Origin: a virus
DNA length: 26,047 nt
Strand: one strand, 5' to 3'
IMG/VR virus record: IMGVR_UViG_3300009151_000328
Span: 1-26,047 of that record
Shown: positions 3,892 through 15,038 of the stretch, piece by piece
Layout of the letters: the number at the start of each line of letters is the position of its first letter
Numbering within the stretch: position 1 is the stretch's first letter
Notes under the pieces: generated by a model
What the model saw: only the letters and a program-made list of their open reading frames with translations
Databases searched by the model: none
Told to the model about the DNA's origin: nothing
Translations under genes and position numbers: made by a program

Positions 3892-3904
3892 GATTGTGCA
3901 AAAT

Positions 3905-3940
3905 AAAAAAGCTGGTCACGGGATTGCCGTCCCTACCAGC
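3905..3940 (-). terminator. Intrinsic terminator, minus strand
   Basis: Read on the minus strand, GCTGGT pairs with ACCAGC, with an inner ACGG/CCGT stem, and six T follow. It would stop minus-strand transcripts coming from the clpP side before they enter the 33-59-32 operon. The same sequence lies in the 5' leader of the plus-strand endonuclease transcript, where it could fold as a leader hairpin. Confidence 0.6.
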
Positions 3941-3974
3941 ACTAATCATTCTTACAATAATTCAAGGAACTATC

Positions 3975-4680
3975 ATGACCAGCAAAACTATATATCTGCC
4001 ATATTTTTACATCATCCAACATAAATCCACTAGAAAGATGTATGCAGGATCAAGATGGGCTAAAGGGTGTCATCCTAATGAATTTATGCAGCCTCATGGG
4101 TATGGTACATCTTCTAAAGTAATAAACCAAATTATTATTCAAGAAGGTATCGATTCGTTTGAAATACTTCGAATCGATACCAATCTTGATGGATTATCGG
4201 CATACGAATACGAAACTTTATTTTTACAAACAATGGATTGTGCCAATTCTCATGATTGATATAATGGTCACAATAATACTGGGATTGCTCCAGCATTAGG
4301 TACCGAATGGTTTAAAAATACTATGAAATCAAAGTATGGTGTTGAATATACTATGCAAATGCCGGATTTCAAAAACAAACAACAAAAATCTAATAAAAAT
4401 ACTTTACTAGAAAGATATGGAGTAGTAAATACAAGTCAAATACAAGAAGTAAAAGATAAAAAGATTGATACTAATATGAAACGATCTGGCTTTGAAAATC
4501 CTAGTCAAGATCCAGAAATTAAAGCTAGAAGTAAAATAACAAGAAAAGCAACTATTGATGGAAACCTACGGAGTTGATAATCCAAATTTCGTAATGTTTC
4601 CATCAATAGTTGCTACTAGAAAATCCTATGCTAAAAATATTCTATCCAGATGTTATCCTGAATTTAAAATATATTACTAA
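3975..4680 (+). pseudogene. Broken GIY-YIG homing endonuclease gene
   Basis: The start (MTSKTIYLPYFYII, then MYAGSRWAKGCHP) is nearly identical to the intact gene at 7297-8190. Two lesions are visible. The Trp codon of the ANSxDWYNGHNN segment is TGA (4257-4259) where the intact gene has TGG. Near 4560 one extra G shifts the frame; after it the other frame reads ETYGVDNPN and ends in a tail like the intact protein (SIVATRKSYAKNI, ending IYY). Between the lesions the frame stays open and keeps the YGV/SQ repeat motifs of the DNA-binding half. The AAGGA ribosome-binding site and late promoter are kept, so a 94-residue N-terminal GIY-YIG fragment may still be made. The end overlaps convergent clpP by 4 bases. 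Confidence 0.88.
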
Positions 4681-7296: not shown

Positions 7297-8190
7297 ATGA
7301 CCAGCAAAACTATATATCTGCCGTATTTTTATATCATCCGCCACAAATCCACTGGAAAGATGTATGCAGGAGCAAAGTGGGCTAAAGGGTGTCATCCCGA
7401 CGAGTTCATGCAAGTTAATGGTTACACTACATCTTCATCAACAATAAACCAAATCATAGAACAAGAAGGACTTGATTCCTTTGAAGTACTTACGATCGAT
7501 ACCAATCTTGATGGATTATCAGCTTATGAATACGAATCCTTATTCTTACAAACTATTAATTGTGCCAATTCTGATGATTGGTATAATGGTCATAACAATA
7601 GTGGTATGGCGTTTGGATTACCTCAATTCTATGAAAAATCTAGGGAAACCTTGATGTATAGATATGGCGTTATTCATCCTTCACAAACACACGATTTTAG
7701 AGACAAAGTGAAGTCTACGTGTGCGTCTCTATATGGAAATGAAAATTATAATAATATTGAACAAAATAAAGAAACGTGTTTTGAACGGTATGGTGATTGG
7801 GCAATTAACGTATCAAGAAATAAATTCTGTAATGATAATGGCGTAGATAACGTTTCTCAATTACCAGGGATATCAAAAAAAGTAGCTGATACAAAAGAAG
7901 AACGGTATGGGACATCAACTTACAATAATAGAGAACAGTGTCGTTCAACTTGCTTAGAGCGTTATGGTGTTGAAAATTACAATAATCCACAAATGAGTAA
8001 ACAAACTAAATTAGAGAAATATGGAGATAGTAACTATACTAATAGAGAACAAGCTAAAAATACTATGTTGTCCAATATTGGTTACGATAATGTATCTAAA
8101 GTGCCATTCCTATCAATAATAGAAACTAGGAAAACGTATGCAAAAAATATAATTTCCAGACGTTTTCCCGAGTTAAAAAAATATTATTAA
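7297..8190 (+). CDS. GIY-YIG homing endonuclease
   Basis: A 297-residue free-standing homing endonuclease. The N-terminal GIY-YIG domain shows YFYIIRH (the GIY strand), GKMYAGAKWAKG (the YIG strand and helix), AYEYESLFLQ with the probable catalytic Glu, and WYNGHNNSG. From residue 115 on, 20-30-residue repeats of the form 'ERYGVxNxxQ...K' occur about six times, a DNA-binding array common in phage homing endonucleases (DUF7487-like). It ends in RKTYAKNIISRRFPELKKYY. Such enzymes cut a phage lacking the gene so that repair copies it in. It has its own late promoter, an AAGGAG ribosome-binding site and a 4-base convergent overlap with phoH. Confidence 0.92.
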   Translation: MTSKTIYLPYFYIIRHKSTGKMYAGAKWAKGCHPDEFMQVNGYTTSSSTINQIIEQEGLDSFEVLTIDTNLDGLSAYEYESLFLQTINCANSDDWYNGHNNSGMAFGLPQFYEKSRETLMYRYGVIHPSQTHDFRDKVKSTCASLYGNENYNNIEQNKETCFERYGDWAINVSRNKFCNDNGVDNVSQLPGISKKVADTKEERYGTSTYNNREQCRSTCLERYGVENYNNPQMSKQTKLEKYGDSNYTNREQAKNTMLSNIGYDNVSKVPFLSIIETRKTYAKNIISRRFPELKKYY

Positions 8191-13364: not shown

Positions 13365-13555
13365 TTGGTCACCTTTAGTTCTTGAGGAACACAATAGGAT
13401 TGGATTGAAAAATCTGTTTTAGATTTTAAATCGGGAACAATCAAGTGTGCAGCATACTCACAAGATTCTTTAGTAGCAAAGGCTTGTGGATCTATTGATT
13501 GTCCAATTCCAGCAGAAGTATTCCAGAAAAAGAAGTATAAGAGGTAACTATGCAC
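13361..13555 (-). CDS. Small exported protein with two cysteines, 64 aa
   Basis: I choose the GTG start at 13555, because GGAG stands 6 bases upstream; the TTG four codons earlier lies on that site. A hydrophobic N-terminus (SYLLYFFFWNTSAG) looks like a signal peptide, followed by FATKESCEYAAHLIVPDLKS and a second Cys near the end (SYCVPQ). The F-x-T-x(3)-CE pattern and the Cys spacing recur in the gene at 17752-17946. A periplasmic disulfide-bonded peptide is likely. Confidence 0.68.
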   Translation of the reverse strand: MHSYLLYFFFWNTSAGIGQSIDPQAFATKESCEYAAHLIVPDLKSKTDFSIQSYCVPQELKVTK

Positions 13556-13637
13556 AAGATTCTCCAAAAGTATTTAACCAACATTTTATGAGGTATAGTG
13601 ATACTGCTATTAGTACCACTGGTATAAATTCTAACAT
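13548..13637 (-). CDS. Very small membrane protein, 29 aa
   Basis: Minus-strand frame MLEFIPVVLIAVSLYLIKCW followed by a nine-residue tail. AAGGAG lies 7 bases before the ATG, and the end overlaps the next gene's GTG start. One transmembrane helix. It is the first reading frame after the structured RNA at 13652-13828. Confidence 0.6.
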   Translation of the reverse strand: MLEFIPVVLIAVSLYLIKCWLNTFGESCA

Positions 13638-13651
13638 TTTATTCTCCTTTT

Positions 13652-13828
13652 CAATTTTAAGTCTAAAGATTGCAGGAGTCGAACCTGAACTATAGAAACA
13701 CGCCTTTATACACAACCGATGTTCGTTCATTATAACATATAGGAATTGAACCTACTCATGGGCTTTCAGGTTTCCACTTTTACCAAAATAGTTATAAGAC
13801 GATTTACTAATCTTTAGGCTTAAAATTG
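13652..13828 (-). ncRNA. Structured RNA with nested tRNA-like parts (possible degenerate tRNAs)
   Basis: On the minus strand, 13809-13828 and 13652-13671 form a 20-bp stem with one mismatch (CAATTTTAAG...AAAGATT with AATCTTT...CTTAAAATTG). Inside are two T-arm-like hairpins: GTAGG-TTCAATT-CCTAT (13739-13755) and CAGG-TTCGACT-CCTG (13673-13687). The second is followed, as in a tRNA, by a 7-base strand AATCTTT plus A, and its partner AAAGATT lies about 130 bases upstream. A second 7-bp pair TTATAAC/GTTATAA (13791-13797, 13730-13736) brackets the first T-arm. I cannot draw a full cloverleaf for either, and no CCA is encoded. It could be a pair of decayed tRNAs, a tRNA disrupted by a second one, or a tRNA-mimicking RNA. 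Confidence 0.45.
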
Positions 13829-13832
13829 AAAG

Positions 13833-13897
13833 GGTTTAACTTCATTAACATCTATTATACTCTGTTTTTCCAAAAGTAAAGCTTTTTTAATATTTTA
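13833..13897 (-). repeat. 65-bp direct repeat, copy 1, with promoter-like -10
   Basis: Identical to 14255-14319 except for one base. On the minus strand it contains TATAAT (13854-13859) with a weak -35 (TTTACT or CTTTAC) 15-16 bases upstream, an A/T-rich AAAGCTTT palindrome, and the leader TTAATGAAGTTAAACC. It lies directly before the structured RNA and may be its promoter. Confidence 0.85.
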
Positions 13898-14228
13898 CTC
13901 GACTTTACGTTTTAAGAAGTGGTTGATATCAGAGTAATACTTAATATCTTCTCTGTCACGAGTACCAGCTTGGTAAGTATCGGCATACTTTAGTCTTTGC
14001 TCAGCATTTTCTTGGCGTTCAATATAATGTTCTTTACCATAAAACCCTTAGGCAACTTGTAATAAAGTGTAGGAAATATCTTCTGATACAGAATAGGTAT
14101 TTTCGATAAATTTTCTAATCGCTTTATGGTCAGAGTTGAATTGGTTTTTGATAACTTCTTCAGTCGCTTTTTCTTTGAACTCAGCGGCGATTAAAGCCAC
14201 TACTTCCTAATTTAATTTTTTCACTCAT
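13895..14228 (-). pseudogene. Broken gene for a 110-aa protein of unknown function
   Basis: From ATG 14228 (GGAG 8 bases upstream) the frame reads MSEKIKL and then stops after a frameshift. Removing one G just after that restores EVVALIAAEFKEKATEEV, then SDHKAIRKFIENTYS, and on to ISYTLLQVA; an in-frame TAA follows, and the frame continues GFYGKEHYIERQENAEQR to the end at KRKVE. The length is 3n+1, as one inserted base predicts. Two independent lesions make true decay more likely than a sequencing error. The restored protein is charged and helical; no family recognised. Confidence 0.75.
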
Positions 14229-14254: not shown

Positions 14255-14319
14255 GGTTTAACTTCATTAATATCTATTATACTCTGTTTTTCCAAAAGTA
14301 AAGCTTTTTTAATATTTTA
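14255..14319 (-). repeat. 65-bp direct repeat, copy 2, with promoter-like -10
   Basis: Second copy of 13833-13897 (64 of 65 bases the same), with TATAAT at 14276-14281. It begins at the last two codons of the upstream gene and ends in the leader of the broken gene, whose promoter it may carry. The two copies flank the broken gene. Confidence 0.85.
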
Positions 14320-14497
14320 TAACAATTTCACCAACGCCATCGGTTTCAAATTCATTAGTGGTTAATTCGATAGTTACGAATCCATCCAATTCTATGTCAC
14401 AACAACCGTATAATTCAATTTGGTGAATTGCGTCACGCAACACCGCTAATATATCAGCGGCTGGTAAGTTCACATTATCTAAAGTTACTTCAGTCAT
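14309..14497 (-). CDS. Hypothetical small early protein, 62 aa
   Basis: Start placed at ATG 14497 (MTEVTLDNVNLPAADILAVL), since GGAG lies 6 bases upstream; an ATG two codons earlier touches that site. Short acidic protein with a helix (ILAVLRDAIHQIELYG) and a beta-like C-terminal half. Reads from early promoter copy C. Confidence 0.7.
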   Translation of the reverse strand: MTEVTLDNVNLPAADILAVLRDAIHQIELYGCCDIELDGFVTIELTTNEFETDGVGEIVIKY

Positions 14498-14549
14498 TTT
14501 CATCTCCGGTTTATCATTAAGGTTTAACTTCATTATCAAGTTTAAATAA

Positions 14550-14603
14550 GTTAACCAATCGTTTAACTTACGGCTATTATCAATCATTTGACCAAAAGGT
14601 CAA
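14550..14603 (-). promoter_or_regulatory. Early promoter module (copy C)
   Basis: Minus strand: TTGACC (14598-14603), 16 bases, GATAAT (14576-14581), AGCCGTAAG, then GTTAAAC-GATT-GGTTAAC (14550-14567), a palindrome with one changed base. The -35 overlaps the stop codon of the upstream gene. Confidence 0.85.
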
Positions 14604-14985: not shown

Positions 14986-15038
14986 TTAACCGATTGGTTA
15001 ACTTACGGCTATTATAACACATTGGTACCAATTGTCAA
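14986..15038 (-). promoter_or_regulatory. Early promoter module (copy D), near-consensus
   Basis: Minus strand: TTGACA (15033-15038), 16 bases, TATAAT (15011-15016), AGCCGTAAG, then TTAACC-AATC-GGTTAA (14986-15001). Both hexamers are perfect sigma70 consensus, so this is the strongest copy. Confidence 0.92.

What the first reader, a model, noticed from the sequence alone, without database searches (positions are those of the whole stretch)
13652..13828. Structured RNA with a 20-bp closing stem and nested tRNA-like pieces
A 20-bp stem with one mismatch closes about 137 bases that hold two T-arm-like hairpins and two separate 7-bp acceptor-like pairs, one nested in the other. The outer acceptor pair is about 130 bases apart, too far for a normal tRNA. 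A promoter-like repeat lies just upstream. It may be one tRNA broken by another, two decayed tRNAs, or a tRNA-mimicking RNA, for example a decoy for host anticodon nucleases.
Basis: partly seen in the sequence, partly recalled or inferred. Interest (0 to 1): 0.72.

Follow-up and report, generated by a model that had tools for sequence, protein, structure and literature searches.

The report
Stem-clamped tRNA-mimic RNA in a phage
A bacterial virus carries a small RNA gene in which two pieces of transfer-RNA shape are locked inside a 26-base-pair clamp; RNAs built the same way turn up in several unrelated and partly cultured viruses and appear uncatalogued, so this looks like an overlooked kind of tRNA imitation that can now be tested in the laboratory.

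Summary
The inverted repeat is longer than reported: 26 nt, 24 paired, at 13646-13671/13809-13834. The only two exact T-arm motifs of the window lie inside it, both on that strand. It is not a canonical tRNA (ARAGORN none; RF00005 12.6 bits against a 29-bit cut-off), not an Rfam RNA, and no single deletion restores a tRNA. The closest relatives (about 95% identical flanks) lack it, so it is accessory and its own pairs cannot be tested by covariation. The architecture recurs: tRNA-like cores with two or three T-arms and a long closing stem abutting the last T-arm occur in unrelated phage contigs (enriched 17-27-fold over control placements). One homologous three-T-arm form is in 26 records of cultured Streptomyces phages, mostly unannotated; its closing stem keeps 100% pairing while all eight pairs change on both sides. 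Two phages of the window's own group carry tandem arrays of stem-closed RNAs with swapped cores. Best reading: an accessory tRNA-mimic RNA with a hyper-extended acceptor stem, released by dsRNA processing (inferred) and perhaps a decoy for tRNA-binding factors (untested). Main doubts: no direct homolog, and free folding hides one T-arm. Closest known: T4 RNAC, bacterial Y RNAs.

The parts
13833..13897 (-). Mobile promoter/leader module: TATAAT at 13854-13859, weak -35, then leader GTTAATGAAGTTAAACC
   Evidence: 65-nt, 98% duplicate of 14255-14319; same module before genes in L051-L053; not listed by the consensus promoter scan
13809..13834 (-). 5' arm of closing stem (extended acceptor, inner end AAAGATT)
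   Evidence: inverted repeat I1; pair probabilities about 1 over most of the stem
13791..13797 (-). 5' strand of inner acceptor-like pair (TTATAAC)
   Evidence: chance 0.7%
13778..13788 (-). D-arm-like TTTTGGTAAAA
   Evidence: sequence; RF00005 alignment of the inner unit 13731-13795, 12.6 bits; tRNA-Sec weak hit 14.1 bits
13739..13755 (-). T-arm A, GTAGG-TTCAATT-CCTAT
   Evidence: exact GGTTCRANTCC; pair probability 0.68-0.83
13730..13736 (-). 3' strand of inner acceptor-like pair (GTTATAA)
13701..13718 (-). CGGTTGTGTATAAAGGCG, D-loop/anticodon-like remnant upstream of T-arm B
   Evidence: sequence reading only
13673..13687 (-). T-arm B, CAGG-TTCGACT-CCTG, abutting the closing stem
   Evidence: exact GGTTCRANTCC; NOT formed in the free MFE fold
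13646..13671 (-). 3' arm of closing stem (starts AATCTTT)
   Evidence: inverted repeat I1; outermost bases overlap the Shine-Dalgarno AAGGAG at 13644-13649
13548..13637 (-). 29-aa ORF MLEFIPVVLIAVSLYLIKCWLNTFGESCA directly downstream, small membrane-protein-like
   Evidence: the ORF is kept in L005 with a different upstream region

Best explanation
The locus encodes an accessory non-coding RNA on the minus strand of a T4-type phage. It is transcribed from a duplicated promoter/leader module and folds into a tRNA-like core (two T-arms, one with an acceptor-like pair and a D-arm-like piece, no usable anticodon arm) locked by a closing stem that is in effect an acceptor stem extended from 7 to about 26 bp. 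The long AU-rich duplex isolates the core as a folding domain and is long enough to be cut by a dsRNA nuclease of the RNase III type, freeing a stable RNA with no aminoacylatable CCA end. With T-arms but no anticodon, it would engage tRNA elbow-binding host factors (modification enzymes, RNase P, or tRNA-targeting defence nucleases) without being decoded, i.e. act as a tRNA mimic or sponge. Shown: sequence anatomy, stem, T-arms, absence in near relatives, recurrence of the architecture, and covariation in one family of the same architecture. Inferred: transcription, processing, stability. Speculative: the target and the decoy role.
For: Stem and T-arms are far beyond chance. Of 315 distinct close-T-arm places in viral contigs, 5 have an enclosing long stem next to the last T-arm against 6 of 6300 control placements (Fisher p 9e-5). 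In 226 loci fetched only by T-arm spacing there are 47 intergenic long stems against 1 after local shuffling; 8 of 47 have a T-arm abutting the 3' arm, and they lie near tRNA genes (p 0.01). A three-T-arm, stem-closed RNA is shared by two uncultured phages and 26 records of Streptomyces phages, with 97.5% paired cells, 15 of 23 pairs changed on both sides, all 8 closing pairs covarying, covariation 0.791 against 0.209 shuffled. Two phages of the window's own PhoH group carry arrays of stem-closed RNAs (alpha folds as a three-hairpin cloverleaf, 100% paired in both versions with two double changes), and one stem type holds three unrelated cores, one tRNA-like. Phage tRNA genes themselves show leader:trailer-extended acceptor stems, 7 with 10 or more Watson-Crick pairs against 0.1 expected.
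Against: No sequence homolog of the window element was found, so its own pairs are untested and it is filed with the others by architecture only. The free fold prefers a helix that hides T-arm B, and the plus strand folds slightly better (z -6.7 against -4.4). Minus-strand mismatches in the stem become G.U on the plus strand. The element lies in the 5' leader of a small ORF, so it could be a leader structure. The 'class' is heterogeneous: true tRNAs with paired leader and trailer, multi-T-arm RNAs and cores without T-arms. No expression data, no host known.
Confidence: 0.5

Rival explanations
1. Decayed tRNA genes: two degenerate tRNA remnants left in a variable early region, between arms that arose by a fold-back or template-switch event, without function now.
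For: Both tRNA-like units are incomplete (12.6 bits for the inner, none for the outer); anticodon arms are unusable; the element is absent in close relatives; a frame-broken gene lies just upstream (13897-14228).
Against: A 26-nt arm pair and two exact T-loop consensus motifs are the parts that would decay first; the same combination recurs in unrelated phages and is under covariation in one family.
Confidence: 0.25
2. A structured 5' leader: the hairpin stabilises the mRNA of, or gates translation of, the 29-aa ORF whose Shine-Dalgarno overlaps the outer stem; T-arm likeness is incidental or serves to recruit a processing enzyme.
For: Promoter, element, Shine-Dalgarno (13644-13649) and ATG (13637) are in line on one strand, and the outermost stem pairs overlap the Shine-Dalgarno.
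Against: The ORF is kept in L005 with a different upstream region; related stem-closed RNAs in L021 and L038 sit in tRNA clusters, not as leaders of one conserved ORF.
Confidence: 0.17
3. A DNA-level feature: terminal inverted repeats of a small mobile element or recombination cassette, or an attP core carrying tRNA 3' ends.
For: The flanking promoter module is duplicated and the region is a hypervariable junction; T4-type phages shuffle genes by promoter/stem-loop cassettes (PeSL, cited in PMC4503421); identical stems hold different cores in L021/L038.
Against: No target duplication or empty site seen; no tyrosine integrase in the window or 13 related or analogous records; stems of the related RNAs prefer structure over sequence, with G.U and compensatory changes.
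Confidence: 0.06
4. A phage Y RNA: long stem for a Ro60/Rsr protein plus tRNA-like module.
For: Same general plan, a long terminal stem plus tRNA-like domain (YrlA; its tRNA-like domain is described in PMC7790460).
Against: YrlA model RF02553 has no match in the window even at E 10; no TROVE-domain protein in the window or 14 other records.
Confidence: 0.02

Closest known systems
Bacteriophage T4 RNAC (species 1 RNA) and RNAD
   Same: Small stable phage RNAs made from the tRNA region; RNAC ends in a perfect T-arm CCGGG-TTCGAAT-CCCGG; function unknown (PMC3014915), seen as late RNAs and validated by Northern blot (PMC9697503).
   Different: RNAC has one T-arm and only a short broken closing helix; no long inverted repeat in the T4 tRNA region; no sequence similarity to the window element.
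Bacterial Y RNA YrlA (RF02553)
   Same: Long stem formed by the two ends plus a tRNA-like domain with a T-arm; a competitive-inhibitor role against an anticodon nuclease has been suggested (PMC7790460).
   Different: No model match, no Ro60/Rsr protein; two or three T-arms instead of one module.
Phage tRNA genes with leader and trailer paired onto the acceptor stem
   Same: Acceptor stem extended to about 20 bp, abutting the T-arm (L207, L223, L126, L125, L132, L269).
   Different: Those hold complete tRNAs; the window core does not.
GOLLD and ROOL RNAs
   Same: Uncharacterised RNAs of phages and prophages, often near tRNA islands (PMC12286853).
   Different: Hundreds of nucleotides, other structures; no Rfam match here.
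T4-type PeSL promoter/stem-loop cassettes
   Same: Mobile promoter module in a hypervariable early region.
   Different: The stem here is 26 bp with a 137-nt tRNA-like interior, not a short terminator.

Membership tests
tRNA (RF00005) | Covariance score over the gathering cut-off and an ARAGORN call | tested here: not met
   12.6 bits against 29; ARAGORN none
tRNA (RF00005) | T-arm with GGTTCRANTCC loop | tested here: met
   two exact, the only two in the window
tRNA (RF00005) | 7-bp acceptor with free 3' end, 5-bp anticodon stem with 7-nt loop | tested here: not met
   outer acceptor runs on into a 26-nt stem; no anticodon arm; no single deletion restores one
YrlA Y RNA (RF02553) | Match to the covariance model | tested here: not met
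   no match in G000 at E 10
YrlA Y RNA (RF02553) | Ro60/Rsr (TROVE) partner encoded nearby | tested here: not met
   0 of 15 records; a host-encoded partner cannot be excluded
T4 RNAC-like phage stable RNA | Sequence homology to RNAC | tested here: not met
   blastn of the element against 50,697 phage records gives only weak unrelated matches
T4 RNAC-like phage stable RNA | Discrete stable RNA in infected cells | not testable with these tools
   no expression data for this phage
Stem-clamped multi-T-arm RNAs (described here) | Two or more T-arms on one strand at non-tRNA spacing | tested here: met
   T-arms 67 nt apart
Stem-clamped multi-T-arm RNAs (described here) | Long closing stem whose 3' arm abuts the last T-arm | tested here: met
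   one base between T-stem and closing stem
Stem-clamped multi-T-arm RNAs (described here) | Compensatory changes in the closing stem | tested here: inconclusive
   shown for the three-T-arm family; no homolog of the window copy to test
GOLLD / ROOL | Match to Rfam models | tested here: not met
   no Rfam family at gathering score in the window
attP of a temperate phage | Tyrosine integrase in the genome | tested here: not met
   PF00589 absent in 14 records; the window is a fragment

The most novel reading that the evidence does not exclude
Phages carry a previously uncatalogued class of RNAs made of one to three tRNA elbow units (T-arm, often with a UGGU D-loop-like piece) without anticodons, each locked by an extended acceptor stem of roughly 8-27 bp, arranged as swappable cassettes in and near tRNA clusters, and used as tRNA decoys or sponges against host tRNA-targeting defences or tRNA-binding factors; the window holds a solitary member.
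Probability: 0.35. Interest if true: 0.85.

Novelty: new variant of a known kind. Interest (0 to 1): 0.7.

Why it matters
Phage tRNA arrays are thought to answer tRNA-cleaving defences (for example Septu and phage tRNA-Tyr, PMC13096335). RNAs that copy the tRNA elbow but lack an anticodon would be a different solution, and they have been missed because tRNA finders skip or mis-call them (Comrade's 'tRNA-Ser') and Rfam has no model. The three-T-arm RNA is present in 26 records of cultured Streptomyces phages, which makes a long-standing question, what the non-tRNA RNAs of phage tRNA regions do (open for T4 RNAC/RNAD), directly testable.

Tried and rejected
Canonical tRNA or tmRNA: none. Rfam at gathering score and at E 10: nothing relevant. 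tRNA interrupted by one insert: 1845 deletions, no tRNA. Direct homologs: blastn in phages, T-arm plus arm pattern gave none; the arm pattern gave 13 stretches, only L038/L043 relevant, and that match could be chance although it follows a similar promoter. Neighbour protein 14309-14587 found only a short leader-region match. Homologs of the L164, L112, L021, L223 and L271 elements in named phages: none convincing. Many long stems in relatives are inside coding genes and were discarded. Y RNA and TROVE: negative. Integrase/attP: negative. Defence-protein models for neighbouring genes: nothing convincing. Close T-arms in cellular genomes: mostly without a stem; 1 of 124 with a long one. MAFFT alignment A5 was out of register at the stems, so covariation was counted on A6, in which linkers were cut out by hand and the 8-bp closing segments were chosen as pairing segments; that choice favours the 100% figure for helix 1, but not the number of different pair types.

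Full report
WHAT IS THERE. The window is a 26-kb IMG/VR fragment of a T4-type phage: a gp32-like single-strand-binding protein (phrog_224, E 3e-107) and PhoH. Most genes, and this element, are on the minus strand. Read 5' to 3' on that strand: a promoter-like module (13833-13897) that is a 98% copy of one at 14255-14319; the 5' arm 13834-13809; an inner tRNA-like unit 13797-13730 with a 7-bp acceptor-like pair, TTTTGGTAAAA (D-arm-like) and T-arm A; a stretch with remnants of a second unit; T-arm B (13687-13673); the 3' arm 13671-13646; then AAGGAG and the ATG of a 29-aa ORF. The stem reported as 20 bp is a 26-nt inverted repeat with two imperfect positions. The two T-arm motifs are the only exact ones in the window.

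IS IT MORE THAN CHANCE. Folding z-scores are -4.4 (minus) and -6.7 (plus), with no shuffle as good. An inverted-repeat scan of the window and related loci found the window stem, and none in shuffled windows. The inner 7-bp pair has a 0.7% chance by shuffling. Against: the free fold does not form T-arm B.

IT IS NOT A KNOWN RNA AND NOT A MENDABLE tRNA. ARAGORN finds nothing; Rfam nothing; RF00005 gives 12.6 bits for the inner unit. None of 1845 single deletions restores a tRNA.

RELATIVES. Two phages with about 95% identical flanks lose homology at the element: L005 matches to 13641 and again from 15069, L006 to 13211 and again from 15046, and the stretch holds other genes there. The element is therefore accessory, in a region with duplicated promoter modules, as in the PeSL shuffling of T4-type phages (cited in PMC4503421).

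THE SAME IDEA IN THE SAME PHAGE GROUP. A scan for the arm sequence led to L038/L043, and the PhoH search to L021. These carry, next to a GroES-like gene and tRNA genes, tandem RNAs each closed by a 16-22-bp AU-rich stem. Element alpha folds as a three-hairpin cloverleaf on a 19-bp stem; its two versions pair 100% with two double-sided changes, against 34-46% for slid controls, which is only two sequences. The stem AATAAAACACATT/AGTGTGTTTTATT holds three different cores, one of them tRNA-like with a D-arm-like and a T-arm (L038 2143-2278). Stems ending in CACAYT/AGTGTG recur in seven contigs, with none for nine control hexamers.

THE SAME ARCHITECTURE ELSEWHERE. Five have a long stem (score 14 or more) enclosing both T-arms and abutting the last one, against 6 of 6300 control placements: L271, L164, L112, L317 and L294; L318 is weaker by this score because its stem is interrupted. 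In loci chosen only by T-arms there are 47 intergenic long stems, 1 after local shuffling, 8 with a T-arm abutting the 3' arm, 41 within 1 kb of tRNA genes. Complete phage tRNAs, notably tRNA-His in five contigs, have paired leader and trailer that lengthen the acceptor stem.

THE PROOF CASE. L317 and L318 share a three-T-arm core with unrelated closing stems. L317 matched Streptomyces phages, and the Moab copy matched 26 phage records, mostly with no annotation. In Moab, Faust and others the RNA fills an unannotated gap beside tRNA-Arg; in Comrade its first part is annotated as tRNA-Ser. In a linker-free alignment of seven distinct copies 97.5% of cells pair, all eight closing pairs change on both sides, and covariation is 0.791 against 0.209 shuffled and at most 0.207 slid. 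The closing segments were selected as pairing segments, so the percentage is favoured; the variety of pair types is not. This shows that an RNA of several T-arms with a closing stem on the last T-arm is a real, conserved thing in phages. It does not by itself show that the window copy is functional.

HOW IT MOST LIKELY WORKS. Shown: anatomy, recurrence, covariation in one family. Inferred from established knowledge (mine, not looked up): a duplex above 20 bp is of substrate size for bacterial RNase III, so the clamp can be the processing signal; without a free CCA end the RNA is not charged; TruB and TrmA recognise the T-arm. Speculative: use as decoy. The YrlA tRNA-like domain has been proposed as a competitive inhibitor of an anticodon nuclease (PMC7790460), and phage tRNA-Tyr as a decoy or supplement against Septu (PMC13096335). 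Chain weights: tRNA-derived RNA element about 0.8; functional RNA about 0.6; decoy or sponge about 0.25.

KNOWN RELATIVES. T4 RNAC and RNAD are stable RNAs of unknown function from the T4 tRNA region (PMC3014915; PMC9697503); RNAC ends in a perfect T-arm but lacks the long clamp. YrlA is the nearest in plan but fails the model and partner tests. GOLLD and ROOL share the genomic habit only. Literature searches of the held library found no description of multi-T-arm clamped phage RNAs; most subscription papers are not held.

Noticed in passing
L382 about 1150-1325 (Patescibacteria MAG, JAGXAD010000044.1): A complete tRNA-Arg(tct), flanked by a 14-16-bp inverted repeat, sits in the variable loop of another tRNA-Arg; removing the inner unit makes ARAGORN call the outer tRNA-Arg(tct). 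A true tRNA inside a tRNA.
   Followed up: partly
L402 about 1915-2090; L400 760-1010 (genome contigs): Similar nested look: tRNA-Pro and tRNA-Asn with 13-16-bp flanking stems followed by a second T-arm; the outer tRNA of L402 was not called after removal.
   Followed up: partly
L439 4982-5063 (Streptomyces phage Comrade): Annotated tRNA-Ser is probably a misannotation: it is the first two T-arms of the conserved three-T-arm RNA.
   Followed up: yes
L207 4097-4170, L223 4054-4126, L126 1797-1869, L125 3261-3334, L269 6826-6901(-): Phage tRNA-His genes have 7-14 bp of leader:trailer pairing that continues the acceptor stem.
   Followed up: partly
L021 6653-7147 and L038 2143-3290(-): Tandem array of stem-closed RNAs (alpha to epsilon) beside GroES-like and tRNA genes; epsilon is almost identical in two phages and unknown to Rfam.
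   Followed up: partly
L089 804-898, L153 3185-3296, L172 8381-8497, L241 712-827, L135 8382-8486, L223 3704-3811: Recurrent RNA type with clamp consensus near CCATATTRAARCACAYT/ARTGTGYTTYAATATGG in phage tRNA arrays, cores unrelated.
   Followed up: partly
L021 6530-6606 (also L055): Phage tRNA with an 8-nt anticodon loop and a four-base anticodon call (gtat), a candidate frameshifting tRNA.
   Followed up: no
window 13897-14228 (-): Frame-broken gene between the two copies of the promoter module.
   Followed up: no
window 3894-4577 (+) and 7297-8190 (+): A broken and an intact copy of a GIY-YIG-looking gene (the intact one matches DUF7487) opposite to the main gene direction, perhaps homing endonucleases.
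   Followed up: no
window 14547-14566 / 14986-15005: 20-nt operator-like inverted repeat (TTAACC.AT.GTTAA) beside two promoter-like sites, one of them a perfect TTGACA-16-TATAAT.
   Followed up: no
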